Assembly: GCA_019218315.1 (NCBI GenBank)
Contig: JAHUUI010000002.1
Location: 1-64,000, forward strand
Length of the DNA: 64,000 nucleotides
From: Cardiobacteriaceae bacterium TAE3-ERU3
GTDB lineage: Bacteria; Pseudomonadota; Gammaproteobacteria; Cardiobacteriales; Cardiobacteriaceae
Reading direction: 5' to 3'
Positions 7,403-24,796 of this stretch are shown one piece after another (the first letter of the stretch is position 1; each line of letters starts with the position of its first letter). Under the pieces are notes generated by a model. The model saw only the letters and a list, made by a program, of their open reading frames with translations, ran no database searches and had not been told where the DNA came from. Made by a program: the position numbers and the translations under genes.

Positions 7403-8592
7403 ATTGCGTCGTGAGTAAGCAAGAGGGTATTGCGTTTAAAGCCGCGTTGCTTGGTATCTCCATCTTTCTACTATCGCACCTTGCGATTGCGCCCGCGATC
7501 CCCAAGTTGTATCAACTTTATCAGCAGCAGAATCCAGATATTGGCTTGGCTTCGGTCGAAAGCCTCGTCACCATGCCCGCTGCAATGATTACTTTGTTTG
7601 TCCTACTCAGCGATGGGGTGGCCCGAAGGTTGGGTAAAAAGCGTACCGTGTTACTTGGTTTGGGCTTAACATTGATGGCTGGCGTTGCGCCATTTTTCTT
7701 GACGGATTTTGTGTGGGTAATGGTCAGCCGCGTATTGCTCGGTATTGGCATTGGCTTGTATAACGCGCTGTCGATCAGTTTGCTCAGTGATTTTTACCAC
7801 GGTCAGCAACGCAGCAACATGATCGGACTGCGTACATCGTTCCTTAATATCGGCAAAGCTCTGACGACCTTTATTGCCGGTTATGCACTGATTTATGGCG
7901 CTGAATATACGTTTCTTGTTTATGTGTTGGTTGTGCCGGTGTGGATATTGTTCGTGCTGTATGTACCTGAACCACAATTATTACAGCACCAGCAGCAGAA
8001 TCGCCAAGCGATGTGGGGTAAGAATACCTTTGGAATTTGCCTGCTGACTTTTCTCGTCGGCGTCTGCTATATCGGTGCAACGGTGAAAATACCGACATTG
8101 CTCGTCAGCTATCACGGCTTGGGCGATGATGATAGCCGCAATATGCTCACCGTCCTGGCTATTAGTGGCACATTGCTCGGCTTTGTTTTTGGTCAAATAT
8201 TTAGCCGTTTACAGGGTTGGATGTTGTCGTTAATGCTTTTGATCATGGCATTGGGCAATGTGCTATTTGCATCAACTTCAAGCGTAGCGCTGCTTTATCT
8301 TGGCTCAATATTCATCGGTCTTGCTTTTGTTGGCACGATGTCGAGTATTTTTTGCTTGATTACGCAGCAGTTTGCGGCTCAAAAAGTTTTATTCGTGACC
8401 AGTATGGCGCTGGCCGCGGGCAATATCGGCGCACTTGCCGCACCAGCTGTATTAACCAAATTGCCTGAACTGTTAGGGTTTGATCATTTGGTTATGCCGT
8501 TTTATATCACCACAGCCATTTTGCTTGTCAGTATGGTTGCCAATATTTTGTTGGCTAAGCCGTGGTTGGGCTTAAGGTCTGCGTACAATTGA
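7399..8592 (+). CDS. MFS transporter
   Basis: This is a major facilitator superfamily permease of about 397 residues with some twelve hydrophobic segments. Between helices 2 and 3 it carries the usual loop motif as DGVARRLGKKR. I take GTG 7399, which overlaps the racemase stop as GTGA; GTG 7411 is an alternative, and neither has a strong ribosome site. The substrate cannot be told. Linkage to the racemase suggests an amino acid or related metabolite. The 3' end overlaps the convergent EamA gene by 21 bases. Confidence 0.85.
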   Translation: MNCVVSKQEGIAFKAALLGISIFLLSHLAIAPAIPKLYQLYQQQNPDIGLASVESLVTMPAAMITLFVLLSDGVARRLGKKRTVLLGLGLTLMAGVAPFFLTDFVWVMVSRVLLGIGIGLYNALSISLLSDFYHGQQRSNMIGLRTSFLNIGKALTTFIAGYALIYGAEYTFLVYVLVVPVWILFVLYVPEPQLLQHQQQNRQAMWGKNTFGICLLTFLVGVCYIGATVKIPTLLVSYHGLGDDDSRNMLTVLAISGTLLGFVFGQIFSRLQGWMLSLMLLIMALGNVLFASTSSVALLYLGSIFIGLAFVGTMSSIFCLITQQFAAQKVLFVTSMALAAGNIGALAAPAVLTKLPELLGFDHLVMPFYITTAILLVSMVANILLAKPWLGLRSAYN

Positions 8593-9441
8593 GCCGATGT
8601 AGATGGCGGTGAGGGTGACGAATGCGCCGAACCATTGCAAAGCATTGATGGGCTTATCAAGTAGCAGATAATCAATGACCAATGCGGCAACGGGTTCACT
8701 GAGCATGATCAATCCGGTGAGCGCAAGGCTGAGCTTGGGAATAGAGAACGCAACCAGCCCCCACGCGACGCATTGCATGACGGTGCCGTAGACAATTACC
8801 AGCGCAATGTCTTGCCAGCCAATTGGCACAAAGTGGCCGTGATCAATAATCAATCCGAGCGGCAGAATGGCGAGTGCACCGGCGGCGCTCGAAATCAGCA
8901 TCAAGGCAATCAGGTTGGTGATTTCAATATCGTGGGTTTTGCGAATACTCGCCATCGCAGCGGCAAACATCAAGCCGGAAATAATACCGCTGGTGAATCC
9001 CCAGGCTGCGTTGTCATTGTGCCTAAATTCGGGGCTGCCGATCATCGCCACGCCGGTAATGGCGAGTAATAGGCTGCAAAGTTGAATTAGGGTCAGGCGT
9101 TCAGCAAAAAAAACGATACCGATACCGGCGAGAAAGAATATTTGTAGGCTATTGAGCAGGGTCGATATTCCGGGGCCGATGGCGTGAATACTTTCATGCC
9201 ACAAGGCAAGGTCTAGGGCGAGGAAGATGCCGGAAAGTGCTGCAAACAACATAGCGATACGCGAAGTCGGCATTGCCGCACGTTGTTGTACGGCAATGAT
9301 GCCAAATACACCAGCTGCAATGGCTAAGCGCCAAAAAGCAATGGCGTACGCTCCGACGTCGACAAATGCAACAATCAGGCTGCCCAGGCCAAATAAAACG
9401 CAGCCGGTGATGAGTAATAAAATAGCGTGGCGCTCACTCAT
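8572..9441 (-). CDS. EamA/DMT family permease
   Basis: The 289-residue protein has ten predicted helices arranged as two EamA repeats (roughly 1-140 and 150-285), typical of drug/metabolite transporters that export amino acids or metabolites. The start ATG at 9441 overlaps the stop of the upstream LysE gene by four bases, so the two exporters are translationally coupled. Its C-terminus overlaps the convergent MFS gene. No substrate-specific feature is visible. Confidence 0.88.
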   Translation of the reverse strand: MSERHAILLLITGCVLFGLGSLIVAFVDVGAYAIAFWRLAIAAGVFGIIAVQQRAAMPTSRIAMLFAALSGIFLALDLALWHESIHAIGPGISTLLNSLQIFFLAGIGIVFFAERLTLIQLCSLLLAITGVAMIGSPEFRHNDNAAWGFTSGIISGLMFAAAMASIRKTHDIEITNLIALMLISSAAGALAILPLGLIIDHGHFVPIGWQDIALVIVYGTVMQCVAWGLVAFSIPKLSLALTGLIMLSEPVAALVIDYLLLDKPINALQWFGAFVTLTAIYIGSIVRRP

Positions 9442-10091
9442 GAATCGACTTCATCCCACAGCAAACGTATCGCGAATAAAATCAATACGCCACCCATGAT
9501 GCGCTCAAACCAATGGCCAAGGCGTAAAAAAGCCTTACGTACAGCCGGGCGCGATAGCATTACTGCGACGAAGGTAAACCACAGTGCGGTACTAAAGCAT
9601 AACCATAGCCCATAAAGAGCCTGTATGGTGAGTGGTGTTTCTGCAGAAACGATAGTGGTAAAAATTGCGAGGAAGAACAGGGTGACCTTGGGGTTTGTGG
9701 CATTGGTCAAAAATCCACGCAAAAAGGCTTTGCGTGCGCTTGGGGTATCAGGCATAACGATGTTGGGGTCGTGTAAGGGAGATGCGGCTGGTTGTGCGCG
9801 CAATAATCCTATCCCCATCCACAATAAATAAGCAGCGCCGATAAGCTTGGCTATGGTCATCGCCCAGTCGTGGGTGACGAGCAAGATACCAATACCGAAC
9901 AGGGTATAAATCACATGCAGAGAAAGACCGCAGCCGATGCCGAGTGCAGTGATAATGCCAATGCGTTGCCCGTGGCGCACGCTTTGGTTGACGATAACCG
10001 CAAAATCCGGCCCGGGAGACATCACGGCAAGTATGTGTGCCACAGTGAGCATGGCAAATTGCGAGAGGTAGAGAGCGGTATTTTTATCCAT
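9438..10091 (-). CDS. LysE/RhtB family amino-acid exporter
   Basis: The 217-residue protein has about six hydrophobic segments and the family signature MSPGPDFAVIV near the N-terminus, plus the NPKVTLFFLAIF segment mid-protein. Members export basic amino acids, homoserine, threonine or similar. ATG at 10091 is the natural start by alignment, but the bases just upstream are the T-run of the purB terminator and I see no Shine-Dalgarno. Translation may be weak or leader-specific. It is coupled to the EamA gene downstream, and the pair forms a small exporter operon. Confidence 0.88.
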   Translation of the reverse strand: MDKNTALYLSQFAMLTVAHILAVMSPGPDFAVIVNQSVRHGQRIGIITALGIGCGLSLHVIYTLFGIGILLVTHDWAMTIAKLIGAAYLLWMGIGLLRAQPAASPLHDPNIVMPDTPSARKAFLRGFLTNATNPKVTLFFLAIFTTIVSAETPLTIQALYGLWLCFSTALWFTFVAVMLSRPAVRKAFLRLGHWFERIMGGVLILFAIRLLWDEVDS

Positions 10092-10095
10092 AAAA

Positions 10096-10128
10096 AAGCT
10101 AGAGTAACCATTAAGATTACTCTAGCTT
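10096..10128 (-). terminator. Rho-independent terminator of purB
   Basis: A 12-bp perfect stem (10096-10107 with 10117-10128) is followed on the minus strand by a run of T at 10092-10097. It ends just before the ATG of the LysE gene, so it separates purB from the exporter pair. Confidence 0.85.
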
Positions 10129-10160
10129 AATTTATCCACGTTATATGAACAAGTAACTGG

Positions 10161-11543
<1,383 letters not shown>

Positions 11544-12122
11544 TTATGAGTCGAGAAGAGTGAGTTTGCCGAGCGTGTCCCGCTGCCAGCGATGGTTATT
11601 GCTGTCAGTGAAAGAAATAGAGATGATACAGCGTTTTCTGCTCATAGTGATTGGTCTGAGTTTGGCGGGATACTGTGAGAGAGGAATGGCGTATTCCCAT
11701 GCGTCTTTGTTGTGTTCAGCTTGCTCAGGGGTTAGAAAATCAGCATAACTACCTTTATGCTTGGCTAAGCAAAAATAGTAGCCGGGGGGCAATATATCAA
11801 TATTGATCGGTAAAGCAGCTTGTTTTTCGCTGTTGAGTAATTCTATAACGACGTCAAAGATAGGTGTATCCGATTGATTTTGAATAATGACACCCACACC
11901 TTTCCAGCTTTTATCCAAAGCATTTAGTGGCGGGATATCTGCGCCAATCCATGCGCTGATTTTGCTTGCTTGCGCGCGCTTTTTTTCTTCTTCTGCATCG
12001 CGATCACGCTGTTGCTCGAGCTTATACAGTCGTCGTGCTTCGTAGGTGGCATATGCAGCAAAGATAACGGCAAATAGTGCAGCATAGGCATTTACCCAGT
12101 CAGCAGAGATGATCATATTCAT
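11544..12122 (-). CDS. Hypothetical protein with one N-terminal membrane helix and a coiled segment
   Basis: I do not recognise this 192-residue protein. From ATG 12122 it has one hydrophobic segment (about residues 8-25), then a highly charged helix-prone stretch (about 28-50, rich in Glu, Arg and Lys), then a mixed alpha/beta domain of about 140 residues with HNKDAWEYAIPL and a final IISISFTDSNNHRWQRD strand-like region. The start ATG overlaps the pgpA stop as ATGA, which fixes it over a GTG at 12131. Being sandwiched between pgpA and purB with coupled translation suggests it is expressed with them, but says nothing clear about function. Confidence 0.75.
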   Translation of the reverse strand: MNMIISADWVNAYAALFAVIFAAYATYEARRLYKLEQQRDRDAEEEKKRAQASKISAWIGADIPPLNALDKSWKGVGVIIQNQSDTPIFDVVIELLNSEKQAALPINIDILPPGYYFCLAKHKGSYADFLTPEQAEHNKDAWEYAIPLSQYPAKLRPITMSRKRCIISISFTDSNNHRWQRDTLGKLTLLDS

Positions 12123-12622
12123 ATAATCCACGCGATCACCCAGAGGACACCTAGCGCAAACACACCTGCGATGATATCGTCAATCATGATGCCGAAACCA
12201 CCAGGTGCATGCTTATCAATCCAGCCGATTGGCGGTGGCTTGATGATGTCGAAAAGACGGAATAGGGCGAATGCAGCGAGCGCTGACCATAGCAACCCCC
12301 AGCGCTCTACGAGTACCGGTGGTAAGCACACCAGCGCCAGCCATACGCCGACGAATTCATCCCAGACGATCCCGCCGAAGTCGTGTACGCCAAGATCCTG
12401 CGCTGTTTTACCGCAAAGATAGATGCCGATGATAAAGCTGACGATCAATAACGCTGCACCAGCCCATGTCCCGATCAGATATGGCGCAAAAGGCAGAAAC
12501 AACAAAGTCCCTGCAACGGTACCCCATGTGCCGGGTGCTGGCGTGATTAAGCCGCTACCGAGGCCAAAAGCGAGGAAATGGATTGGCTGCTTGATCAGTG
12601 CGCTAAAGCTGGTCGGCATCAT
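12119..12622 (-). CDS. pgpA: Phosphatidylglycerophosphatase A
   Basis: PgpA dephosphorylates phosphatidylglycerol phosphate in the inner membrane. The 167-residue protein shows the family pattern: GTWGTVAG near residue 31, helices through the middle, VWDEFVGVWLAL, RLFDIIKPPPIGW near 120 and the GGFGIMIDDIIAG motif. ATG 12622 overlaps the pyrD stop as ATGA, and its own stop overlaps the next start the same way. It is part of a tightly packed minus-strand chain. Confidence 0.95.
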   Translation of the reverse strand: MMPTSFSALIKQPIHFLAFGLGSGLITPAPGTWGTVAGTLLFLPFAPYLIGTWAGAALLIVSFIIGIYLCGKTAQDLGVHDFGGIVWDEFVGVWLALVCLPPVLVERWGLLWSALAAFALFRLFDIIKPPPIGWIDKHAPGGFGIMIDDIIAGVFALGVLWVIAWII

Positions 12623-13638
12623 GAAGTGTGCTCGCTATTGAGGCATTCCTGAATAAGCTGTGGGCCACGATAGATAAAGCCGCTGTAGATTTGCACGAGA
12701 TTAGCACCAGCGGCGAGTTTGTCGCGGTAGTCGGCTGCGGTCATGACGCCACCTGCGGCAATGATGGCAATCTCTGGTAGGCGCTCGCGGATTTGCGCGA
12801 TGATTGCTGTGCTGCGTTCGCTCAATGGTGCGCCTGATAAGCCGCCTTGTTCATCACCATGCGGGTGATTGGCAACGCTGCTTTTATCGAGCGTGGTGTT
12901 GGTAGCGATGATGCCATCAACGCCACTGTATTTAATCACATCGAGCATTTGCTCCAGTGCTTCTTCATTATTATCCGGCGCAATTTTAACCACCAACGGC
13001 ACATAGCGTCCGCTTTGCTTATGGCGCTCACTTTGTGCAGCTTTTAACCCACCAAGCAAATCAGCCAGTGCTTTACCGTGTTGTAAATCACGTAGGCCTA
13101 CGGTGTTGGGTGAGGAAATGTTGATGGTGAGATAGTCTGCGAGTGGATAAGCAGCATTGAGGCCGATCAGGTAGTCATCAAGTGCACATTCATTTGCTGT
13201 GTCTTTATTTTTGCCGAGGTTGATGCCGATCAGAGGAGGATGCTGCACCAAGGCCAGACGAGAGCGTGCTTTACTGACGTTGGCACAGAGGCTTTCAATG
13301 CCGTTGTTGTTAAAGCCCATGCGGTTAATGATCGCGTGGTGCTCAGGTAAGCGGAAAAGGCGTGGCTTGGGGTTGCCGGCTTGGGCGCGTGGCGTGACGG
13401 TGCCAACCTCAATAAAACCAAAGCCCATACGCGCAAATGCGGGAATAGCAATGGCATTTTTATCCAGCCCGGCTGCAAGTCCGAGGCGGTTTGGAAAGGT
13501 TAGCCCCATGCACTGGGTTGGCTGATGGTGACTAAATTCCGGCGCAAGCCACGGGCACTTGCTCAAACTGCTAAGGGTCAGGTTATGGCTGGTTTCAGGA
13601 TCACAACGAAAAAGCAGGGGTTTGATGAGTTTATACAT
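12619..13638 (-). CDS. pyrD: Dihydroorotate dehydrogenase (quinone), class 2
   Basis: PyrD oxidises dihydroorotate to orotate with FMN, passing electrons to quinone at the inner membrane. The 339-residue product starts MYKLIKPLLFRCDPETSH, the membrane-associating N-terminus of class 2 enzymes. It has GFGFIEVGTVTP, the ISSPNT segment with the catalytic Ser, and the C-terminal phosphate-binding IYSGFIYRGP. The start at 13638 lies within the last codons of serC (8-base overlap). A longer frame reaching 13851 would only read serC antisense to its own frame and is rejected. Confidence 0.96.
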   Translation of the reverse strand: MYKLIKPLLFRCDPETSHNLTLSSLSKCPWLAPEFSHHQPTQCMGLTFPNRLGLAAGLDKNAIAIPAFARMGFGFIEVGTVTPRAQAGNPKPRLFRLPEHHAIINRMGFNNNGIESLCANVSKARSRLALVQHPPLIGINLGKNKDTANECALDDYLIGLNAAYPLADYLTINISSPNTVGLRDLQHGKALADLLGGLKAAQSERHKQSGRYVPLVVKIAPDNNEEALEQMLDVIKYSGVDGIIATNTTLDKSSVANHPHGDEQGGLSGAPLSERSTAIIAQIRERLPEIAIIAAGGVMTAADYRDKLAAGANLVQIYSGFIYRGPQLIQECLNSEHTS

Positions 13639-14713
13639 GTTGCTGTTCAAATTGCTGCATGAAGTCAATGAGTGCGTCAACGCTGGCCATTTCCAAAGCG
13701 TTGTAAAGGCTGGCGCGCAGCCCGCCAACGCTACGATGGCCTTTGAGCCCTGAGAGTCCCGCTGCATCAGCAGCGGAGACAAAGGCTTTATCCAACTCTT
13801 CGGACGGGGTACGGAAGATAACGTTGGTGTGCGAGCGGTATTCAGGGGCAATTGGGTTGTAGTAGAAATCGCTGCTGTCGATGGCAGCGTAGAGTTTGGC
13901 TGATTTTTCTGCGGAAAACTGATTGAAATGGCTGATGCCGCCTTGTTCTTTCATCCAGTGTAGCACTTTGTTGAGTATGTAAATTTGCCACGTCGGTGGG
14001 GTATTGTAGAGAGAGTTGGCGTCAGCGTGGGTTTTATAGCAGCTAAACTTGGCAATCTCAGGGTGGTCGACAAGGTAATTTTCATGAACGAAGACCAATG
14101 CCAGACCTGATGGAGCAAGGTTTTTCTGTACGCCGCCATAAACCACTGCGCAGCGTTCCCACGGAATATCGCGGGTGTAATAGTCTGATGAAGCGTCGAT
14201 GACCAATGGAATGCCGAGGTCTGGATATTCGCGCCATTGAATGCCGCCGATCGTTTCGTTGCTGGTGATGTGCAAGTAGCGGTAATCCTTGTCGCCAATG
14301 CTCAGTTCTTCAGCAGCGGGAAGCGTGGTGTAGTCTTTGGCTTTACCGTCCCAGATGCAGCGCATGGTTGCGATGCGGTTGGCTTCACTGAGCGCTTTAC
14401 CGGCCCAAATGCCGCTGTTGATGATCGCGGCTTCACCGCCTTCGGCGAGCAGATTTTGTGCACTCATGGCAAATTGCTCGCTGGCGCCGCCTTGTAATAA
14501 CAACGGCTTGAATTGTGGCGGGGCTGAGATGAGTTCTTGTGCCAAAGCCAATGTTTCTTCATGGACTTGCATAAACACCTTGCTGCGGTGCGAGATTTCC
14601 ATGACCGACATGCCGGTGCCGGCAAAGTTGGTGAGTTCATTTTGCGCTGCTTCGAGCACGGACAAAGGCAATGTACAAGGGCCTGCACAGAAGTTGTGGA
14701 TGCGTTGGGTCAT
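13631..14713 (-). CDS. serC: Phosphoserine aminotransferase
   Basis: SerC is a PLP enzyme that makes phosphoserine from 3-phosphohydroxypyruvate, and also acts in pyridoxal phosphate synthesis. The 360-residue protein has HNFCAGPCTLPLSVLE at the start, GGASEQFAM, the YGGVQKNLAPSG segment containing the PLP lysine near residue 194, and the C-terminal GHRSVGGLRASLYNA. It is the first gene of the serC-pyrD-pgpA-unknown-purB chain. The usual neighbours serA, pheA or aroA are not present. Confidence 0.97.
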   Translation of the reverse strand: MTQRIHNFCAGPCTLPLSVLEAAQNELTNFAGTGMSVMEISHRSKVFMQVHEETLALAQELISAPPQFKPLLLQGGASEQFAMSAQNLLAEGGEAAIINSGIWAGKALSEANRIATMRCIWDGKAKDYTTLPAAEELSIGDKDYRYLHITSNETIGGIQWREYPDLGIPLVIDASSDYYTRDIPWERCAVVYGGVQKNLAPSGLALVFVHENYLVDHPEIAKFSCYKTHADANSLYNTPPTWQIYILNKVLHWMKEQGGISHFNQFSAEKSAKLYAAIDSSDFYYNPIAPEYRSHTNVIFRTPSEELDKAFVSAADAAGLSGLKGHRSVGGLRASLYNALEMASVDALIDFMQQFEQQHV

Positions 14714-14743
14714 GGTGATGCGTCCAAAAAAGGGCTAAAGTAG

Positions 14744-14773
14744 CACTATCATTGCAGTGGTGCAATGATAGTG
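14744..14773 (-). terminator. Hairpin terminator after fhs
   Basis: A perfect 13-bp stem (14744-14756 with 14761-14773) with a four-base loop lies between fhs and serC. The T-tract on the minus strand is short (CTACTTT), so termination may be partial and fhs transcripts may run on into serC. Confidence 0.7.
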
Positions 14774-14818
14774 TTTATTGATGCTGGTGCTTAGAATTTG
14801 TTGGCGATTCAGCATGGC

Positions 14819-16480
14819 TTAGAACAGCCCGGTAATCCGACCTTCTTCATCAACCGAAATACGCTCGGCCGCTGGTGATTTGGGTAAGCCAGGCATTTTC
14901 ATGATGTTGCCGGCAATAGCGACGACGAAGCCTGCGCCAGCCGATACCTGCGCATTTTCGATATGCAAGGTAAAGCCTTCTGGTGCGCCAAGTTGGCTTG
15001 GATCATCGCTGAAAGAGTATTGGTTCTTGGCGATGCACACTGGTAAGTCTGAAAAGCCGAGTTCTTCAAGCTTTGCCAACGATTGTTGCGCGGCTTTGCT
15101 GAATGCGACATCTTTGGCGCGGTAGACTTTTTGCGCGATGGTGCTGATCTTGTCGGTCAATGACAGTTCGTTGTCATAGATCGGCGCGAATTGAGCAGGG
15201 TTTTGCAGTGCCTCAAGCACGGCTTCAGCGAGTGCTTTGCCGCCTTTACCACCCTCAGCCCATACATCGCAAAAAGCGACGCTTACGCCAGCTTCGGCGC
15301 ATGATTGCTTGACAGTCTGCAATTCTGCATCGCTATCGCTGCTAAAGCGATTAATCGCAACCACGACTGGGACACCAAAGCGCTGCATATTTTCAATGTG
15401 GCGGCGAAGATTGGGCAAGCCATTTTCCAGTGCTGAGGTGTCTTCATCGTTGAGTTCATTTTTTGCTTTGCCACCGTTGTATTTCAGTGCGCGGATGGTG
15501 GTGACGATCACGGCACAATCAGGGGCAATACCCGCTTGGCGGCATTTGATATCGCAGAACTTCTCCGCACCAAGGTCAGCACCAAAGCCCGCTTCGGTGA
15601 CGGTGTAGTCAGCAAAGTGCATGGCGGTTTTGGTCGCGATGACACTGTTGCAGCCGTGGGCAATATTGGCGAATGGGCCACCGTGGACGAATGCCGGTGT
15701 GCCTTCGATGGTTTGCACGAGGTTGGGCTTTAGTGCGTCTTTAAGCAAAGCAGCCATCGCGCCGTGTGCATTGAGATCGCGAGCGTAAACAGGCTGCTGA
15801 TCGCGGGTGTAGCCAATGAGAATATTGCCGAGGCGCTGCTGCAGGTCGGTGAGATCTTCTGCGAGACAGAAAATTGCCATAACTTCCGAAGCAACGGTGA
15901 TGTCGAAGCCGTCAGGGCGGGTGACACCATCAGCTGTGCCGCCAGCACCGCTGATAATTTGGCGCAGTTGGCGGTCGTTCATATCTACTGCGCGACGCCA
16001 CGTGATGCGCTTGGGGTCAATGTTCAGTGCATTACCGTGGTGGATATGGTTGTCGATCATTGCTGCGAGCAGGTTATTGGCTGCGCTGATCGCGTGAATA
16101 TCGCCAGTGAAATGCAGGTTAATCGCTTCCATCGGTAGCACTTGCGCGTAGCCGCCGCCTGCAGCGCCACCTTTGATGCCAAATACCGGACCAAGCGAAG
16201 GTTCGCGGATGGCAATCGCAGCATTTTTACCGAGCTGACGCAAAGCATCGGCCAGCCCGATGGTGACAGTGGTTTTGCCCTCACCAGCCGGGGTTGGATT
16301 GGTCGCGGTAACGAGAATGAGCTTGTGATTTGACGGTGCTTTTGTGAATGGCGTAGGGGGGGTGAGCTTGGCGATGTGATGACCGTAAGGGATCAAGTCT
16401 TTTTGTTCGATACCAAGCGTGGCAGCAATGTCTGTAATGGGTTGTAATTGGGCGGCATAAGCGATGTCGGCGTCATTCAT
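14819..16480 (-). CDS. fhs: Formate-tetrahydrofolate ligase
   Basis: This enzyme makes 10-formyl-THF from formate, THF and ATP, feeding purine and formyl-Met synthesis. The 553 residues match the family. The P-loop TPAGEGKTT is near residue 64, and [17 protein letters not shown] and [12 protein letters not shown] are conserved. The C-terminus has [19 protein letters not shown]. Its location before serC and purB groups one-carbon, serine and purine genes, which makes metabolic sense. The ribosome site is weak. Confidence 0.96.
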
Positions 16481-16938: not shown

Positions 16939-17901
16939 ATGGTAAAAACAGTGGTGGTGGCTTTTGGTGGTAATGCCTTGATTAACGATTCGGGTAAAAC
17001 AGCCTTTCCACATCAGTATGATCATCTTACGCAAACTGTTGGTCATATTGTCGATCTTAAAGAAGCAGGATGGAATGTGGTAGTTGTGCATGGGAACGGC
17101 CCACAAGTTGGTTTTTCCCTACAGCGTTCTGAAATAGCCAAATCAGAAGTTAGTCCGCTGCCATTAGATTATGCCGTTGCTGAATCTCAGGGGTCGATTG
17201 GCTTTATGTTCCAGCGTGCTCTGAATAATGAAATTATTCGCCGTGGCCTCAATTTACAGGTTGCTACTGTAGTTACTGAAGCACTAGTCAAAGAGGATGA
17301 TGTGGCTTTTTCTCAGCCAAGTAAGCCGGTTGGTGGCTTTATGAATAAGGAAGAAGCACAAAAGGTTCAGAAGGAGCTGGGCTGGAGCGTTATGGAAGAT
17401 GCTGGTCGAGGATGGCGGCGTTGTGTTGCCAGTCCAAGGCCTATCCGTATTTTGGAGCAAGATATTATTCATCAGCTCATTGATAATGGCGCGATTGTGA
17501 TTGCTGGTGGCGGTGGCGGTATAGCAGTTTGTGAAGATGAACACGGTAATTTGCAAAGTCTTGAGGCAGTTATTGATAAAGATTTGACAGCTGCCTTGAT
17601 AGCCGTTGAGCTGCGTGCCGATTGCCTGCTGATTCCGACCGGTGTGCCGAAAGTTGCAATACATTTTGGCCAGCCAAATCAGCAGTGGCTTGATACTTTG
17701 ACTCTCGAACAAGCGCAGGAGCTCATTGATCGAGATGAGTTGGGTAAAGGTTCAATGCAGCCAAAAGTAGAGGCGTTAATGCAATATGTGGCGGCTTGTC
17801 CGAGTGGTTGTGGTGTGATTACCGATCCGCCGTCCATGCTTGAGGCACTTGCAGGCAAAAATGGTACGCGCCTTCAGGGGCAATATTATCAAAGTCAGTA
17901 G
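16939..17901 (+). CDS. Carbamate kinase of the AllF/G/H module
   Basis: The 320-residue protein is a carbamate kinase: it starts VVVAFGGNAL and has VVHGNGPQVG near residue 50, the long IVIAGGGGGIAV segment near 190, VIDKDLTAALIA near 215 and the GSMQPKVEA motif near 274. In catabolic settings it transfers phosphate from carbamoyl phosphate to ADP, yielding ATP, ammonia and CO2. There is no arcA/argF-type transferase nearby. Instead the downstream genes are homologues of AllH, AllF and AllG, so it is likely the AllK equivalent. It is first in the operon, with the LysR gene 15 bases later. Confidence 0.92.
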   Translation: MVKTVVVAFGGNALINDSGKTAFPHQYDHLTQTVGHIVDLKEAGWNVVVVHGNGPQVGFSLQRSEIAKSEVSPLPLDYAVAESQGSIGFMFQRALNNEIIRRGLNLQVATVVTEALVKEDDVAFSQPSKPVGGFMNKEEAQKVQKELGWSVMEDAGRGWRRCVASPRPIRILEQDIIHQLIDNGAIVIAGGGGGIAVCEDEHGNLQSLEAVIDKDLTAALIAVELRADCLLIPTGVPKVAIHFGQPNQQWLDTLTLEQAQELIDRDELGKGSMQPKVEALMQYVAACPSGCGVITDPPSMLEALAGKNGTRLQGQYYQSQ

Positions 17902-17916
17902 TTGAGGTGAGTAACC

Positions 17917-18819
17917 ATGAGCTTTTCTTCCGATACGATTCGCGTACTGCAAATTATTGCGCAAACAGGCAGTTTTAGTGAGGCCGCTAAAGTTCTGCAT
18001 CGTGTGCCATCAGCAGTGAGCTATACGGTTAAAAAAATGGAAGAAGAGCTCGAGGTGCCGCTGTTTGATCGCAGTGGAAAGAATGTACGCCCAACACCAG
18101 CTGCGCAATATATTATTGAACACAGTGATTGGATTTTACACGGGTTGAATGAATTAAAGCGCAATGCTACACAAATTAGCACAGGTATAGATCGCAATTT
18201 TACTATTGCTCTGAATTATATTGTCAACCCTAAGCCAATCGCACCATTACTAGAGCAATTAATCAGCAAATTTCCCGCAACCAAATTTGCCGTGCGTACT
18301 GAAGTATATAACGGATGCTGGGATGCTTTATACGAAGGCCGCGCTGATTTAGTCATCGGTGCACCACAGAGTGCTCCACACAATGATGGGGTATCTACAG
18401 AGTATCTCGGTGATATTCGGTGGTCTTTTGTAGTTGCTGCTTCTCATCCACTTGCCGATCATGATGGCGTATTGAGTGCCGAAGATGTACGCGCATATCC
18501 ATCAATCGTTGTTCATGATTCTTCGGTAGCACTTAGCCCGAAAAAGACTTGGGCATTAAAAGGCCAAAAAGTCGTTTATGCCGCTGATTTGAATATGGTG
18601 TTAACGCTAATCCAACAGGGTATTGGCCTTGGTTTCCTCCCAGATAGCTTTATCGAGTCTGCTTTGGCAGATGGCAGTGTGGTGCGCAAGCAGATTATTG
18701 AGTGTAAGCAGCCTGTGCCCGTTTATTACGCATGGCGTTTGCATCATCAAAGTGTGTTATTGGATTTTCTGCTCGATATTTTGCGGAATCCAGTGTGTAA
18801 GCAGCAATGGCTGCAATAA
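17917..18819 (+). CDS. LysR-family regulator, AllS/PunR-like
   Basis: The 300-residue protein has an N-terminal winged helix-turn-helix (about 4-62; GSFSEAAKVLHRVPSAVSYT) and a periplasmic-binding-like effector domain. From memory, the effector half resembles E. coli AllS, the activator of allantoin genes, and PunR. The parts in common are the DSS...W.L.GQK stretch and GIGLGFLPDSFI. ATG 17917 follows GAGGTGA. It sits inside the operon between the kinase and ankyrin genes, on the same strand. It therefore probably controls its own transcript, through the dyads at 16852-16884. The inducer is unknown but presumably is the transported substrate or a breakdown product. Confidence 0.88.
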   Translation: MSFSSDTIRVLQIIAQTGSFSEAAKVLHRVPSAVSYTVKKMEEELEVPLFDRSGKNVRPTPAAQYIIEHSDWILHGLNELKRNATQISTGIDRNFTIALNYIVNPKPIAPLLEQLISKFPATKFAVRTEVYNGCWDALYEGRADLVIGAPQSAPHNDGVSTEYLGDIRWSFVVAASHPLADHDGVLSAEDVRAYPSIVVHDSSVALSPKKTWALKGQKVVYAADLNMVLTLIQQGIGLGFLPDSFIESALADGSVVRKQIIECKQPVPVYYAWRLHHQSVLLDFLLDILRNPVCKQQWLQ

Positions 18820-18843
18820 GTTAGCAATAAAAAGGAGTGTTTT

Positions 18844-19434
18844 ATGAGTGGGCAGGAATTGTTTCAAGCTGTCGCATCAGGTGAACAGGCTCAGGTAGAA
18901 AAGCTACTTGAGTGTGGTGCGGATATCAATAGCCGTGATAAAGGAAAGCGTACACCAATTTTGGTCGCTGCGCAGAATAAGCATTACGACTTGGTACGCT
19001 GGTTGGCTGAGCAGGGAGCTGATATTAATGCTCAGGACAATAAGTCTTTCAATCCGTTTATTCACGGCTGTATTAATAACGATTTGACGCTAGTCAAATT
19101 AATGGTTGAACTCGGTACAGACGTTACTTGCCTGACCCGTTTTGGGGGTAATGGACTGACTCCAGCAGCTGAAAAAGGGCATGAGGAGATCGTTAAATAT
19201 CTGCTGGAAAATACAGATATTAATGTCAATTTAACCAATACTGTAGGTTGGACTGCATTGATTGAAGCCATCATCCTCAATGACGGCTCAGAAAAAATGC
19301 AACGTATTGTACGTACTTTGCTAGAGCATGATGCTGATCCGAATATGACGGACGAATGGGGTGTTAGTCCGTTGGATTTGGCAAAGCGCAAAGGCTACAG
19401 CGAAATTGCCGCCATCATTGAAGAATATTTATAA
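18844..19434 (+). CDS. Ankyrin-repeat protein
   Basis: The 196-residue protein consists almost wholly of ankyrin repeats. Five to six units can be laid out at about 1-31, 35-65, 68-98, 103-133, 135-171 and 174-196, with motifs such as TPILVAAQNKH, GADINAQD, GLTPAAEKGHEEIV and SPLDLAKRKGY. There is no signal peptide or membrane helix, so it is cytosolic. AGGAG precedes ATG 18844. Such proteins bind other proteins; in this operon the natural partners are the AllF/G/H subunits or the regulator. That is inference; no catalytic role is visible. Confidence 0.88.
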   Translation: MSGQELFQAVASGEQAQVEKLLECGADINSRDKGKRTPILVAAQNKHYDLVRWLAEQGADINAQDNKSFNPFIHGCINNDLTLVKLMVELGTDVTCLTRFGGNGLTPAAEKGHEEIVKYLLENTDINVNLTNTVGWTALIEAIILNDGSEKMQRIVRTLLEHDADPNMTDEWGVSPLDLAKRKGYSEIAAIIEEYL

Positions 19435-19449
19435 GTAGAGGTAGCATCG

Positions 19450-20292
19450 ATGAGCGGTTTGATCACTATGATGGATCGGGAAATCGCAAGCAGTTATGCA
19501 GATCTAGATCAGGATTTGATACTGATTTCCGCTCATCGTCACGTCATTAATTTTCATCCTGTAAATAACCCTGACAAAGTCTTGGCGCTGGTTGACGAGG
19601 AAATTGCGCTGGGCCCCCGCCAGTTGCGATGCCGTAATTTGCCTGTAGCCGATGCCGAGGCTATCAGAAGCCTGATAGCCCGCAGTTGGCCACAAATGTT
19701 CAGTTGCGCACTGCGCTTACCAGTAAGTGCGCTCAATGTATCGGTAGTGGAGAGTGCTTGGCTGCGTTTATCGGCAGCGGCGGCTGAAGCCCCAGATGCG
19801 TTTAGTAGACAAATACAAAAGCATTTACAGCACGCCATTGTAGCTCTGCTCGCGGCACTGCAACATCCTCACCCCTTCCGTGATGATATAGACAGTGCGG
19901 TGAGTTCGTTAATCGGCCTTGGTGGTGGCTTAACCCCTAGTGGTGATGATTTTTTATCGGGACTACTGGTGGCAATGCATTTACAGAGCAGTCCGTTAAG
20001 CCAGCATTTAGCGCTACTGCAAACGGCAGTTCAGCGTTATCTCAATCAAACGCACGTAATTTCTGCGGCTTTTATCAGCGATGCAGTGCTGGCACAGGTA
20101 AGCAGTACTGTGCAGGAATTTGTCGATTGCTTGCACGATAGCACAGTGGAGCAACAACGCGTTCAGGCGTCATTAAGTAGCTTGACCGATCTAGGGCATC
20201 GCTCGGGTTATGACTTGCTCAGTGGTTTGTTGGCAGGATTACCTTTTTTACACAACAGGAGTACAGCACTATGTCCATACATAGCCAGTTGA
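19450..20292 (+). CDS. allH: AllH-like DUF2877 protein (YlbF family)
   Basis: The 280-residue protein carries the DUF2877 hallmark GLGGGLTPSGDDFLSG at about 156-171, a glycine-rich loop likely to bind a phosphate or acyl group, and a final GHRSGYDLLSGLLAG. In E. coli the homologue YlbF, with FdrA and YlbE, is reported to form oxamate carbamoyltransferase (AllH/F/G). It lies 15 bases after the ankyrin gene, and its last 22 bases overlap the start of the FdrA-like gene. Length is close to the E. coli protein. Function by homology is likely, but substrate identity here is not shown. Confidence 0.85.
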   Translation: MSGLITMMDREIASSYADLDQDLILISAHRHVINFHPVNNPDKVLALVDEEIALGPRQLRCRNLPVADAEAIRSLIARSWPQMFSCALRLPVSALNVSVVESAWLRLSAAAAEAPDAFSRQIQKHLQHAIVALLAALQHPHPFRDDIDSAVSSLIGLGGGLTPSGDDFLSGLLVAMHLQSSPLSQHLALLQTAVQRYLNQTHVISAAFISDAVLAQVSSTVQEFVDCLHDSTVEQQRVQASLSSLTDLGHRSGYDLLSGLLAGLPFLHNRSTALCPYIAS

Positions 20293-21818
20293 AACGAAAT
20301 ACTTACGTTGACTCAGTTACCTTGATGGCTGTATCAACGGCAGCCAATCAGCTTGACGGCGTTCGCCAAGCTCAGGTTGCGATGGGCACTACAATGAACA
20401 AAACGGTGCTTGAGGAACTCAATCTACTTGATGAGACGCTCCAAGCAGCTGGTAATTCAGATTTGATGGTGGTTTGTGACTTGGAGAAAGGCATTGATGT
20501 CGATGATATTTTTGCGGCTATTGATGCGCTTCTTGCCCGTAAGCCTGAGCAAGATAAGGGCGATAGCAGTGAAATATTTCATACTTTAGGTGCTGCAGCT
20601 GAAGGCGTTCCTGAGAGTAACTTTGTCATTATTTCCGTCAATGGCGCGTATGCAGCCCGTGAAGCGCAGCAAGCGTTGCAGCTCGGTAAGCACGTTATGC
20701 TCTTTTCAGATAATGTCAGTATTGAAGACGAACGTCGTCTGAAAGCTTTAGCGCACAAGAAAGGTTTGCTGATGATGGGCCCAGATTGCGGTACGGCGAT
20801 CATTAACGGCGTGGGCCTGGGTTTTGCCAATAAAGTACGCCGTGGCAATATCGGTATTGTCGCTGCATCTGGAACTGGTGCGCAGGAAATGTCCGTCCGG
20901 ATTCATGAATTCGGCGGGGGGGTATCGCAGTTGATAGGCACTGGTGGCCGAGATTTATCGGCAGATATCGGTGCAAGGATGATGCTAGACGGCTTGAATA
21001 TGCTGGCTGAAGATGAGCAAACAGAAGTCATTGTTCTGGTCTCTAAGCCGCCAGCAACGGAAGTGGCTGAAAAAGTACTTGCGGCAGCAGGCAAAATTAA
21101 CAAGCCGGTGTTTATCCAGTTCCTCGGTTATCAGGATCAGCCATCGTGTAGTGAAAATATTCATCTCTTTGCGCATAGTAAGCCGGCAGCAATGGCCGCT
21201 GTTATTGCATCGGGTGTTGATGAAGGCAGCATTGATAAGCATGCTTTGAACTGGCCACTGATTGAAGAAGTGCGCGCCAAGCTTAGCCCCGAGCAGCGTT
21301 ATATTCGCGGTCTGTTCTGTGGCGGCACGTTATGTGATGAAGCCCTCTTTGCTGCTTCAGAAATCCATCAAGATATTTATTCCAATATCCATCCTGATCC
21401 TGCTCGCCGAATCGGGCCGAAAGATGCGAGTAAAGCACATACCTTCCTCGACTTTGGCGATGATGCTTTTACCAATGGCCGCGCCCATCCAATGATCGAT
21501 CCGAGTTATCGCGTTGAGCGTATTCTCAGTGAAGGTCGCGATCCGGAAGTGGGCGTGTTGTTACTCGATTTTGTCCTCGGATTCGGTGCTAATGCAGATC
21601 CTGTTGGGACGACTCTGGATGCACTGATTACGGTGAAACAGGAAGCAGAAGCGGCTGGGCGTCATTTGGAAATTCTCGCCTATGTGCTCGGTACAGATCT
21701 CGATGAGCCTGATGTAGCCAGCCAGGTAGCACGGCTTGAAGCTGCCGGCATCACCATCGCATCTAGCTCGACCAATGCTGGATTGCTGGCGCGTGAATTT
21801 GTTGTAAAAGGAGCTTGA
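20271..21818 (+). CDS. allF: AllF-like protein (FdrA family, succinyl-CoA-synthetase-like)
   Basis: The 515-residue FdrA homologue is built like the succinyl-CoA synthetase alpha chain. It has a CoA-binding-like domain with SDNVSIEDE, GPDCGTAIING (170-180) and ASGTGAQE (199-206), the GTGGRDLS loop (223-230), and a second ligase-like half with GLFCGGTL, DPSYR and VLLLDFVLGFG. FdrA is not known to act on CoA esters and is thought to be the core of the oxamate carbamoyltransferase. ATG 20271 follows AGGAG at nine bases and lies inside the end of the AllH gene. It is somewhat shorter than E. coli FdrA as I recall it, ending soon after the last ligase domain. Confidence 0.87.
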   Translation: MSIHSQLKRNTYVDSVTLMAVSTAANQLDGVRQAQVAMGTTMNKTVLEELNLLDETLQAAGNSDLMVVCDLEKGIDVDDIFAAIDALLARKPEQDKGDSSEIFHTLGAAAEGVPESNFVIISVNGAYAAREAQQALQLGKHVMLFSDNVSIEDERRLKALAHKKGLLMMGPDCGTAIINGVGLGFANKVRRGNIGIVAASGTGAQEMSVRIHEFGGGVSQLIGTGGRDLSADIGARMMLDGLNMLAEDEQTEVIVLVSKPPATEVAEKVLAAAGKINKPVFIQFLGYQDQPSCSENIHLFAHSKPAAMAAVIASGVDEGSIDKHALNWPLIEEVRAKLSPEQRYIRGLFCGGTLCDEALFAASEIHQDIYSNIHPDPARRIGPKDASKAHTFLDFGDDAFTNGRAHPMIDPSYRVERILSEGRDPEVGVLLLDFVLGFGANADPVGTTLDALITVKQEAEAAGRHLEILAYVLGTDLDEPDVASQVARLEAAGITIASSSTNAGLLAREFVVKGA

Positions 21819-21820
21819 TC

Positions 21821-23242
21821 ATGAATCAGACCGAAAAATTATTCGAACAGCCTTTAAATGTACTCAATATTGGTATCGCTCAATTCGCAGAGGATTTACG
21901 GCGTCAGCAGACAACTGTGACTCAACTTGACTGGCAGCCACCGGGCAAAGGTGATACGGCAATGGTCGCAGCACTTGCTAAAGTTGAACAGCCTGAGATC
22001 GCTGAAAAAATCCATGCAGCCAACCAAGAGGCATTAACGCGGATTACCAGTGCTCAGCCTGTCTTGACCGGATATGGGCGTGCGCAAGATGTGATTCCAG
22101 GCATGACAGGGAAAACGCTATTGCATGCAGGTCCGCCTATCGATTGGGCAAACATGAATGGCCCGATGCGGGGCGCAGTTACCGGTGCTATCGTCTTTGA
22201 GCGTTGGGCAAAAAATCTTGATGAAGCTGCTGAACTGGCAGCCAGTGGTGAAATTAATTTCAGCCCGTGCCACGAGCATCAAGCTGTTGGATCTATGACC
22301 GGTATTACCAGCCCATCGATGTACGTTCATGTGGTGGAAAACAAAACACACGGCAATATCGCCTTCACTAATCTTTCTGAGCAACTTGCAAAGATTCTGC
22401 GTATGGGGGCTAATGATCAAAGCGTGATAGATCGCCTCAACTGGATGCGTGATGTCTTCGGGCCAATACTTGCACAAGCGATGACTTTCTGCGAAGAGGG
22501 TATTGATTTGCGGCTTATGCTGGCGCAGGCACTGCATATGGGGGATGAATGTCATAACCGCAATGTTGCTGGTACCACGCTGTTGATTCAGAAGTTGACT
22601 CCGTATATTCTCGAAACTGATTTTAGCAACAAAGATAAAAAAGACGTTTTCAATTTTGTTGCATCGTCAGATTATTTCTCTGGCCCTACATGGATGGTCT
22701 GCTGTAAAGCGGCATTGGACGCAGCAGAAGGTATTGAGCATTCTACGGTGCTGACCACTATGGCGCGCAATGGCTATGAGTTTGGTATTCGTGTTTCAGG
22801 GTTGCCTGGTCAATGGTTTACCGGCCCTGCACAGCAGGTTATCGGCCCAATGTTTGCTGGCTATAAACCGGAAGATTCTGGCTTGGATGTTGGCGATTCT
22901 GCGATCACAGAAACCTATGGTATCGGTGGTTTTGCCATGGCCGCAGCACCAGCAATCGTTTCGCTGGTAGGCGGCACGGTTAATGATGCAATGCGTTACA
23001 GCAAAACTATGCGCCAGATCACAACTGGCCTCAATCCAAACGTAACCATTCCATCGCTGAATTTCATGGGTATTCCTACCGGTGTGGATGTACGCAAGGT
23101 TATTGAGAGTGGTGTACTGCCATTAATCAATACAGCGATAGCACATAAAGAAGCGGGTATCGGCATGATTGGTGCTGGTATCGTTCATCCTCCAATGGAA
23201 GCATTCACCAAAGCCATGCAAGCCATTGCAGCACAATACTAA
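21821..23242 (+). CDS. allG: AllG-like DUF1116 protein (YlbE family)
   Basis: The 473-residue DUF1116 protein has an N-terminal NIGIAQFAEDL...LDWQPP segment, a long helical core and conserved stretches such as GAVTGAIVFE, HEHQAVGSMTG, GDECHNRN and GIGMIGAGIVHPP. Its role is known only by association with FdrA and DUF2877 in carbamoyl transfer. ATG 21821 follows AAAGGAGC and starts two bases after the AllF stop; an in-frame TTG at 21815 is less likely. The permease follows after 21 bases. Confidence 0.87.
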   Translation: MNQTEKLFEQPLNVLNIGIAQFAEDLRRQQTTVTQLDWQPPGKGDTAMVAALAKVEQPEIAEKIHAANQEALTRITSAQPVLTGYGRAQDVIPGMTGKTLLHAGPPIDWANMNGPMRGAVTGAIVFERWAKNLDEAAELAASGEINFSPCHEHQAVGSMTGITSPSMYVHVVENKTHGNIAFTNLSEQLAKILRMGANDQSVIDRLNWMRDVFGPILAQAMTFCEEGIDLRLMLAQALHMGDECHNRNVAGTTLLIQKLTPYILETDFSNKDKKDVFNFVASSDYFSGPTWMVCCKAALDAAEGIEHSTVLTTMARNGYEFGIRVSGLPGQWFTGPAQQVIGPMFAGYKPEDSGLDVGDSAITETYGIGGFAMAAAPAIVSLVGGTVNDAMRYSKTMRQITTGLNPNVTIPSLNFMGIPTGVDVRKVIESGVLPLINTAIAHKEAGIGMIGAGIVHPPMEAFTKAMQAIAAQY

Positions 23243-23263
23243 ACATCATTCAGGAGAAAAGTG

Positions 23264-24796
23264 ATGACTACAAAATTATGGAGAAAAGGTGATTGGGCGG
23301 CATTTTTCGGGTTATTCAGTAATAACCTGACAAACTTGCTGACCATGATTGCATTACTGACGCTTGTCGTTGGTATTCCTGCTGAAGTTGTTTACGGGCG
23401 CATTGCACCAGCTTTTGGTTTGGCTGTATTTTGCGCCAGCGTATGCTACGTTATTTTTGCCAAGCAACTTGCCAAAAAAACCGGACGTGAAGACGTCGTT
23501 GCGCTACCTTCCGGGCCTAGTGCACCATCTATCTTTACCGTGACCTTTTTGGTTTTGCTACCAGTCTATCAGTCTACACAAGATTATGAATTTGCTATTC
23601 GTATTGGTCTTGTATGGGGCTTTGTCGAAGGCTTGATTCTGTTTGTCGGTGCCTTTATGGGTGACTTTTTGCGCCGTGTTGTACCGCGTACAGTGCTATT
23701 GTCTTGCCTAGCTGGTTTGGGGTTGCTGTTACTGGCGATGAACCCAATGCTACAGGCCTTCCATACACCAATTGTATCGTTCGTAGTACTGGTGCTGATT
23801 TTTATCAACTGGTTTGGGCGCTCACCAATGTTCCGTAAAGTTCCTACCGGATTACTGCTTTTAATCGTGGGTACTATTCTGGCATGGGTTTTTGGTTTGC
23901 AAGATGCTGGCGCCATAGGTAGTGCATTGTCTAGCGCAGGATTTAATCCTCCAACGCCACATATCGGTAGTTTCCTTGAAGGAACCAAAGTCGCTGCACC
24001 ATATTTGGCTTCGGCTGTCCCACTGGCATTGGCCAACTATGTCTTTGACCTTGAAAACATCGAAAGTGCGCATGCTGCGGGTGATCCCTATCCTACACGC
24101 CGAGTGATGATCGCTAACGGTGGTTCAAGTATGTTCGGTGCGCTGATGGGTAACCCGTTCCCGGTAACCGTATATGTTGGCCATACTGCATACAAAGAAA
24201 TGGGTGCCGGTATTGGTTATACCTTGGCTACAGGTGTGGTTATGTTGCTCGTCTGTATGTTCGGCCTCGGCGCATTCCTGCTTTCACTGATTCCAATGGC
24301 AGCGATCGCACCAATCCTGATTTTCATCGGTATTGTGACTGCAAATCAGGTTGTACGTGAAACACCAAAATTGGAAGTTCCAGTGATCTTTGTCTGCCTG
24401 TTCCCATGGATTGGCGCATGGGCACTGACTTTGGTTGGCAATACCTTAAAGAGTGCTGGTACCAATGCGATGAATGTTGGTTGGGATGTTATCGAGCGAA
24501 GTGGTGTGGACTATACGGGCCTTTACCATCTCGGTAGTGGGGCGCCATTATCATCACTCTTGTGGGGATGTATTGCTATCTTTGCTATCACCAACGAACC
24601 GAAAAAAGGCGTTATTGCAGCATTGATTGCAGCAGGACTGGCCTATTTCGGTATCATTCACGAGCATGTGCCTGTAGTTGGTGGCGAAGGCCCGACTATG
24701 TTTATGATTTCATACCTCATGGTCGCCGGATTGTTATTGCTCAAGCATATTCTCAATCAGCGTGAGCAGCAGCATCAACCTTCTCCTAATAAATAA
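23264..24796 (+). CDS. NCS2-type permease of the carbamoyl module
   Basis: The 510-residue integral membrane protein has about 12-14 hydrophobic segments. Its N-terminal KGDWAAFFGLFSNNLTNLLTM region and central MFGALMGNPFPVTVYVGHTAY segment resemble the purine/xanthine/uracil (NCS2) carriers, though of a divergent branch. AGGAG precedes ATG 23264. It is the last gene of the operon and the only transporter in it, so it most likely imports the substrate that AllF/G/H act on. Candidates are oxalurate, allantoin-related ureides or another carbamoylated acid. Purines themselves would need upstream enzymes not found here. Confidence 0.85.
   Translation: MTTKLWRKGDWAAFFGLFSNNLTNLLTMIALLTLVVGIPAEVVYGRIAPAFGLAVFCASVCYVIFAKQLAKKTGREDVVALPSGPSAPSIFTVTFLVLLPVYQSTQDYEFAIRIGLVWGFVEGLILFVGAFMGDFLRRVVPRTVLLSCLAGLGLLLLAMNPMLQAFHTPIVSFVVLVLIFINWFGRSPMFRKVPTGLLLLIVGTILAWVFGLQDAGAIGSALSSAGFNPPTPHIGSFLEGTKVAAPYLASAVPLALANYVFDLENIESAHAAGDPYPTRRVMIANGGSSMFGALMGNPFPVTVYVGHTAYKEMGAGIGYTLATGVVMLLVCMFGLGAFLLSLIPMAAIAPILIFIGIVTANQVVRETPKLEVPVIFVCLFPWIGAWALTLVGNTLKSAGTNAMNVGWDVIERSGVDYTGLYHLGSGAPLSSLLWGCIAIFAITNEPKKGVIAALIAAGLAYFGIIHEHVPVVGGEGPTMFMISYLMVAGLLLLKHILNQREQQHQPSPNK

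What the first reader, a model, noticed from the sequence alone, without database searches (positions are those of the whole stretch)
18844..19434. Ankyrin-repeat protein embedded in the carbamoyl operon
A cytosolic protein made only of ankyrin repeats lies between the regulator and the AllH gene with its own good ribosome site. The enterobacterial all locus, as I recall it, has no such gene. It may be a scaffold holding the three AllF/G/H subunits with the kinase to channel unstable carbamoyl phosphate, or a sensor acting on the regulator or permease.
Basis: inference. Interest (0 to 1): 0.62.

Follow-up and report, generated by a model that had tools for sequence, protein, structure and literature searches.

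The report
Ankyrin partner of YahEFG-type enzyme
The ankyrin-repeat gene is real and is the counterpart of E. coli yahD; in every relative that could be checked an ankyrin gene travels with one branch of a little-known carbamoyl-transfer enzyme, so it is most likely a dedicated helper or subunit of that enzyme, whose job nobody has tested.

Summary
Confirmed: 18844-19434 (+) encodes a 196-aa cytosolic protein of six ankyrin repeats with a good ribosome site, in a tight operon (kinase, LysR regulator, ankyrin, AllH-like, AllF-like, AllG-like, permease).

It is not an oddity of the all locus. The operon is the counterpart of E. coli K-12 yahB / yahDEFG / yahI (G: 70% to YahG, 47% to YlbE/AllG; ankyrin: 50% to YahD). 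Of 181 distinct AllG-family loci, those of the YahG clade carry an ankyrin gene within 6 kb in 83 of 84 scorable cases (gamma- and alphaproteobacteria, Bacillota, Actinomycetota); the exception has it 11.4 kb away. None of the 95 AllG loci outside the clade has one.

F and G are present in all 78 ankyrin loci with full flanks. AllH is not recognised in 18, the regulator is absent in 28 and the kinase in 8. Ankyrin evolutionary distances track F alone among operon partners. In most Bacilli and in Azospirillum the slot is filled by a distinct ankyrin-TPR form.

Best reading: a dedicated accessory subunit or assembly factor of the YahF-YahG enzyme. Kinase-scaffold and regulator-sensor readings are weakened. 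Function and binding are untested; one fused complex prediction was uninformative. Novelty: new member of a known (annotated, uncharacterised) kind.

The parts
18844..19434 (+). Ankyrin-repeat protein, 196 aa, six repeats, ortholog of E. coli YahD
18833..18837 (+). Shine-Dalgarno AGGAG of the ankyrin gene
   Evidence: direct sequence
16939..17901 (+). Carbamate-kinase-like gene (YahI 43%, YbcF 39%)
17917..18819 (+). LysR-type regulator (YahB 35%; sub-threshold PunR/AllS)
19450..20292 (+). AllH/DUF2877 subunit-like (YahE)
20271..21818 (+). AllF/FdrA-like subunit (YahF 58%)
21815..23242 (+). AllG/DUF1116 subunit (YahG 70%, YlbE 47%)
23261..24796 (+). Putative permease, 511 aa, recurrent in yah-type operons; no Pfam or NCBIfam match

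Best explanation
The gene is a YahD-type ankyrin protein. It is a dedicated cytosolic accessory protein (stable fourth subunit or assembly factor) of the YahF-YahG enzyme, a relative of the E. coli oxamate carbamoyltransferase AllFGH. It most likely binds the F subunit, or the F-G pair, through its conserved concave face and holds or matures the complex. Shown: ortholog relation, fold, operon linkage, clade-wide co-occurrence, purifying selection. Inferred: physical binding, the concave face as the site, F as the main contact, and that the enzyme does carbamoyl-phosphate chemistry on an unidentified nucleobase-derived ureido compound.
For: YahG clade (SH support 100): 83 of 84 scorable loci have an ankyrin within 6 kb, and the exception has an ankyrin-TPR gene 11.4 kb downstream; 0 of 95 AllG loci outside the clade. 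F and G present in 78/78 ankyrin loci with full flanks; H not recognised in 18, KIN absent in 8, window-type permease in 23, LysR in 28, YahJ in 26. In H-less Enterobacter-type loci the ankyrin is under strong purifying selection (median dN/dS 0.087), and two such genomes have no AllH anywhere. Partial correlation of protein distances: ANK pairs only with F (0.61; top partner in 300/300 subsamples), F with G, and KIN with LysR and YahJ. The slot is filled by two ankyrin clades (YahD type; ankyrin-TPR in most Bacilli and Azospirillum), and Lysinibacillus changed type while keeping a Bacilli G. Concave-face positions of repeats 2-6 average 0.82-0.88 conserved against 0.44-0.76 on outer helices. 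Precedent: operon-linked ankyrins required for activity of their neighbour catalase (P. aeruginosa AnkB-KatB, C. jejuni Cj1386-KatA, as summarised in PMC7567364).
Against: No binding or enzymatic data. AllFGH, the characterised relative, is active without any ankyrin (PMC11326118). Much of the conserved concave patch (R99, G102, E110, W136) is shared with secreted relatives in unrelated HK-RR-heme-binding-protein operons, so it may be a family trait and not an F/G-binding site. The F-specific co-variation could partly reflect recombination blocks or similar rates. The fused G + ankyrin-TPR prediction gave pTM 0.45 with G itself poorly modelled: uninformative, not negative.
Confidence: 0.55

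Rival explanations
1. Scaffold that brings the AllF/G/H enzyme together with the carbamate kinase so that unstable carbamoyl phosphate is channelled.
For: The kinase is in the same neighbourhood in 70 of 78 ankyrin loci, and in Bacilli the ankyrin-TPR gene often directly precedes the kinase.
Against: Kinase absent from 8 ankyrin loci; no specific ANK-KIN co-variation (partial -0.09); the AllFGH-AllK operon has no ankyrin.
Confidence: 0.12
2. Sensor or regulator that acts on the operon's transcription factor or permease.
For: In the window and in Pasteurellaceae the ankyrin gene follows LysR directly.
Against: LysR absent from 28 of 78 loci, with a PucR-type regulator in the Bacillota locus examined; window-type permease absent from 23. 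ANK-LysR partial correlation 0.05.
Confidence: 0.12
3. Functional stand-in for, or competitor of, the AllH subunit: the ankyrin takes over H's place on F-G, so that H can be lost.
For: H lost in Enterobacter/Lelliottia, Avibacterium and one Bacillota locus while the ankyrin, F and G stay. AllH is required in the ankyrin-free AllFGH enzyme (PMC11326118).
Against: About three quarters of ankyrin loci keep a recognisable H beside the ankyrin; F is damaged in one Avibacterium locus, so part of the H loss may be decay.
Confidence: 0.12
4. Passenger gene with a role unrelated to the enzyme, kept near it by chance or selfish linkage.
For: Ankyrins of the same wider family sit in unrelated operons.
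Against: 83 of 84 linkage across four major groups with rearranged gene order, 0 of 95 outside the clade, and dN/dS 0.087.
Confidence: 0.04

Closest known systems
E. coli K-12 yah locus (yahB, yahD-yahE-yahF-yahG, yahI, yahJ); YahD
   Same: Same set of genes, same order ankyrin-E-F-G, 50% identity of the ankyrin over 184 aa, G 70%, F 58%. The yahD-yahG stretch is in 4958 of 5426 complete E. coli genomes.
   Different: In the window the kinase lies upstream, LysR is co-directional, a permease follows G, and there is no YahC. A YahJ homolog was not found in the genome.
AllFGH oxamate carbamoyltransferase (fdrA-ylbE-ylbF) with AllK
   Same: Homologous F, G, H and kinase; Pfam models AllG and AllH match.
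   Different: No ankyrin; separate clade of G; a ~54-aa segment that opens G in the yah type closes FdrA in the all type. No allantoin genes in the window operon.
Secreted ankyrins of HK-RR-heme-binding-protein operons; solved relative 5d66 (A. baumannii ABAYE2397)
   Same: Same six-repeat fold (5d66 Z 28.2) and shared RFGG and GWTALLEA motifs; nearest relatives outside the operon.
   Different: Hydrophobic N-terminal leader, different operon, only about 35-39% identity.
AnkB-KatB / Cj1386-KatA / Leptospira ank-katE
   Same: Works-like precedent: an operon-linked ankyrin protein needed for activity of the neighbouring enzyme (PMC7567364).
   Different: Partner is a heme catalase; sequence membership was not tested.

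Membership tests
YahD (E. coli ankyrin protein of the yah operon) | Full-length orthology, not merely shared ankyrin repeats | tested here: met
   50% identity over 184 of 196 aa; inside the YahD clade, support 100/100
YahD (E. coli ankyrin protein of the yah operon) | Neighbourhood: DUF2877-FdrA-DUF1116 of the YahG clade directly downstream | tested here: met
YahD (E. coli ankyrin protein of the yah operon) | Biochemical role | not testable with these tools
   No function of YahD found in the literature searched
AllFGH oxamate carbamoyltransferase operon | G subunit in the YlbE/AllG clade | tested here: not met
   G lies in the YahG clade; 70% to YahG against 47% to YlbE
AllFGH oxamate carbamoyltransferase operon | Oxamate/oxalurate activity | not testable with these tools
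   Substrate unknown; needs an enzyme assay
Secreted ankyrins of HK-RR-heme-binding operons | N-terminal leader and HK-RR-heme-binding neighbours | tested here: not met
   Window protein starts MSGQELFQAV with no leader; neighbours differ
Dot/Icm T4SS ankyrin effectors (NCBIfam Ank models) | Score over the curated cut-off | tested here: not met
   Best 55 bits against a cut-off of 600
AnkB-type catalase partner | Linked catalase gene | tested here: not met
   No catalase among the operon's genes

The most novel reading that the evidence does not exclude
YahD-type ankyrins are an obligatory subunit of a separate class of FdrA/DUF1116 carbamoyl-transfer enzymes: a repeat-protein subunit recruited from a secreted ankyrin family, exchanged at least once for a different ankyrin-TPR form, and able to make the AllH subunit dispensable.
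Probability: 0.25. Interest if true: 0.62.

Novelty: new member of a known kind. Interest (0 to 1): 0.45.

Why it matters
yahD-yahG is in about nine of ten complete E. coli genomes and has no known function. The clade-wide link says what to look for: an ankyrin-dependent relative of the recently identified oxamate carbamoyltransferase. It gives a concrete partner (YahF/YahG), a contrast (AllFGH works without an ankyrin), natural variants (H-less operons, ankyrin-TPR forms), and a rare case of a bacterial ankyrin protein tied to a metabolic enzyme and not to a host.

Tried and rejected
Fused G + ankyrin-TPR chain (L043, stop read as Gly) folded to probe contact: pTM 0.45, G itself poorly modelled, uninformative. 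A first alignment (A2) that split the ankyrin-only rows was discarded. One origin of the two ankyrin types: YahD plus ankyrin-TPR as one clade not rejected (p-AU 0.37), so independent recruitment is not shown. Apparent exceptions were followed: L037 has the gene 11.4 kb away; L042 has a 95-aa reduced ankyrin; L014, L048 and L068 are cut by contig ends. Literature on yahD gave only incidental mentions. T4SS effector hits rejected as far below cut-off. Natural fusions of the ankyrin to F, G, H or kinase: none seen in the gene maps, only ankyrin-TPR.

Full report
What is there. The ORF at 18844-19434 (+) encodes 196 aa, starts with ATG, and has AGGAG six bases upstream. Only ankyrin models match over their cut-offs in Pfam (Ank_2 8.9e-41). 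AlphaFold2 on 36 orthologs gives pLDDT 96.7, pTM 0.91 and six helix pairs. The nearest solved structures are 5d66 (Z 28.2) and 3hra (Z 27.0), both bacterial ankyrin proteins. The gene lies in a co-directional run with gaps of at most 24 bp or short overlaps: kinase 16939-17901, LysR 17917-18819, ankyrin, AllH 19450-20292, AllF 20271-21818, AllG 21815-23242, permease 23261-24796.

What it corresponds to. E. coli K-12 carries two operons with these enzyme genes. The all locus (fdrA-ylbE-ylbF-ybcF) has no ankyrin. The yah locus has yahB, yahC, yahD (ankyrin), yahE (DUF2877), yahF (FdrA-like), yahG (DUF1116), yahI (carbamate-kinase-like) and yahJ (amidohydrolase). Window proteins match the yah set: G 70% (YlbE 47%), F 58% (FdrA 37%), kinase 43% (YbcF 39%), ankyrin to YahD 50% over 184 aa. 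The yahD-yahG stretch is present in 4958 of 5426 complete E. coli genomes.

Does the neighbourhood recur? I took 80 loci closest to the window's G from GTDB genomes and, independently of the window sequence, AllG loci from even draws of Pseudomonadota, Bacillota and Actinomycetota (AllG in 16/398, 60/398 and 49/396 genomes, with flanks). Among 181 distinct AllG proteins with flanks scanned for ankyrins, a G tree puts every ankyrin-bearing locus in one clade with support 100: 87 rows, 83 with an ankyrin within 6 kb, three cut by contig ends, one without (L037). In L037's genome an ankyrin-TPR gene lies 11.4 kb downstream of G. None of the 95 loci outside the clade has one. The first set is biased toward close relatives, but the phylum draws agree. 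The clade covers gammaproteobacteria, Azospirillum, Bacillota and Sanguibacter (Actinomycetota).

Which partner? Across 78 ankyrin loci with full flanks, F and G are never missing. A recognisable H is missing in 18, the kinase in 8, the window-type permease in 23, LysR in 28 and YahJ in 26. A few of the 18 may hold H fused to F, as the enlarged F ORFs in L039 and L036 suggest. In Enterobacter-type loci the ankyrin is followed directly by F, two such genomes have no AllH match at all, and the ankyrin evolves under purifying selection there (median dN/dS 0.087, with F 0.057 and G 0.042). In 44 loci, partial correlations of log protein distances link ANK only to F (0.61), F to G (0.56), and KIN to LysR and YahJ (0.49, 0.54); F was the top partner of ANK in all 300 subsamples. 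This is suggestive only, since rates and recombination blocks can contribute.

Two ankyrin forms. Most Bacilli loci and Azospirillum carry an N-terminal ankyrin domain fused to a TPR domain, in Bacilli usually placed after G. YahD-type and ankyrin-TPR form separate clades (100/100 each) inside a wider family whose other members carry N-terminal leaders and, in three annotated plasmid records, sit beside a histidine kinase, a response regulator and a heme-binding protein. Joint monophyly of the two is not rejected (p-AU 0.37). In the G tree Lysinibacillus, with a YahD-type ankyrin upstream of H, is nested among ankyrin-TPR Bacilli: the slot was refilled by another ankyrin, not left empty.

Surface. 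In the YahD clade the positions that DARPins use for binding (register from my own knowledge of the DARPin consensus) average 0.82-0.88 conserved in repeats 2-6, against 0.44-0.76 on outer helices. That fits a conserved partner on the concave face. Much of the patch (R99, G102, E110, W136, L145) is shared with the secreted relatives, so it cannot by itself be read as an F/G site. Residues conserved in YahD but different in the relatives include Q64, C68, N70, C76, L97, T124, N127 and N146 (the window itself has S at 68).

How it most likely works. Shown: orthology, fold, linkage, clade-wide co-occurrence, purifying selection. Inferred: the ankyrin binds F or F-G and is needed for assembly, stability or activity. 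A works-like precedent is the catalase-linked ankyrins (AnkB-KatB, Cj1386-KatA), described as required for catalase activity in PMC7567364. AllFGH itself is active without an ankyrin (PMC11326118), so the requirement would be specific to the YahG clade. The enzyme's substrate is unknown. One Bacillota locus carries a PucR regulator, an NCS1 permease, a deaminase-fold protein and an amidohydrolase, and E. coli YahJ is an amidohydrolase; both point to nucleobase-type compounds by inference only.

Origin. Operon GC3 is 0.37-0.46 against 0.57-0.60 in three flanking housekeeping genes, the same-genus genome G204 has no AllG, and the nearest G proteins after a Cardiobacteriaceae MAG are from Pasteurellaceae. 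Horizontal acquisition is likely.

Verdict. A real, non-random and interesting association, already present but uncharacterised in the E. coli core genome. The literature held here does not describe it. I file the gene as a YahD ortholog: a new member of a known kind.

Noticed in passing
window 21815-21988 (G residues 5-58) and L010 FdrA C-terminus: The first ~54 residues of the YahG-type G subunit are homologous to the last ~53 residues of FdrA in the all system: the F/G subunit boundary has shifted between the two systems.
   Followed up: partly
L093 (G000:C1:38000-54000): The window's genome has a second AllG-family locus (kinase, H, divergent LysR, 258 aa, F, G, 160 aa, 438 aa, 310 aa) of another clade, without an ankyrin.
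   Followed up: partly
L204 (pAPEC-O2-ColV) 7682-16127: A conjugative ColV plasmid carries a yah-type operon with its own YahD (72% to chromosomal YahD); F and G each match in two pieces in different frames, so they look broken there. 78 E. coli plasmid records hold a related ankyrin gene.
   Followed up: partly
L052, L104, L106 and related Enterobacter/Lelliottia loci: AllH (DUF2877) is missing from the operon, and from the whole genome in two tested cases, while the ankyrin, F, G, kinase and YahJ are kept.
   Followed up: partly
window 23261-24796: The 511-aa putative permease that recurs in these operons matches no Pfam or NCBIfam family.
   Followed up: no
window 16939-24796: The operon has low GC3 against flanking housekeeping genes, and AllG is absent from the same-genus genome G204: probably horizontally acquired.
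   Followed up: partly
L206, L207, L208: A recurrent operon of histidine kinase, response regulator, heme-binding protein and leader-bearing ankyrin in Deinococcus and alphaproteobacteria; the wider family from which YahD seems to derive.
   Followed up: partly
L018:1988-2698 and L028:1149-1862: Two Neobacillus loci have a second, 236-237-aa ankyrin gene a few kb upstream of the operon, close to the YahD clade.
   Followed up: no
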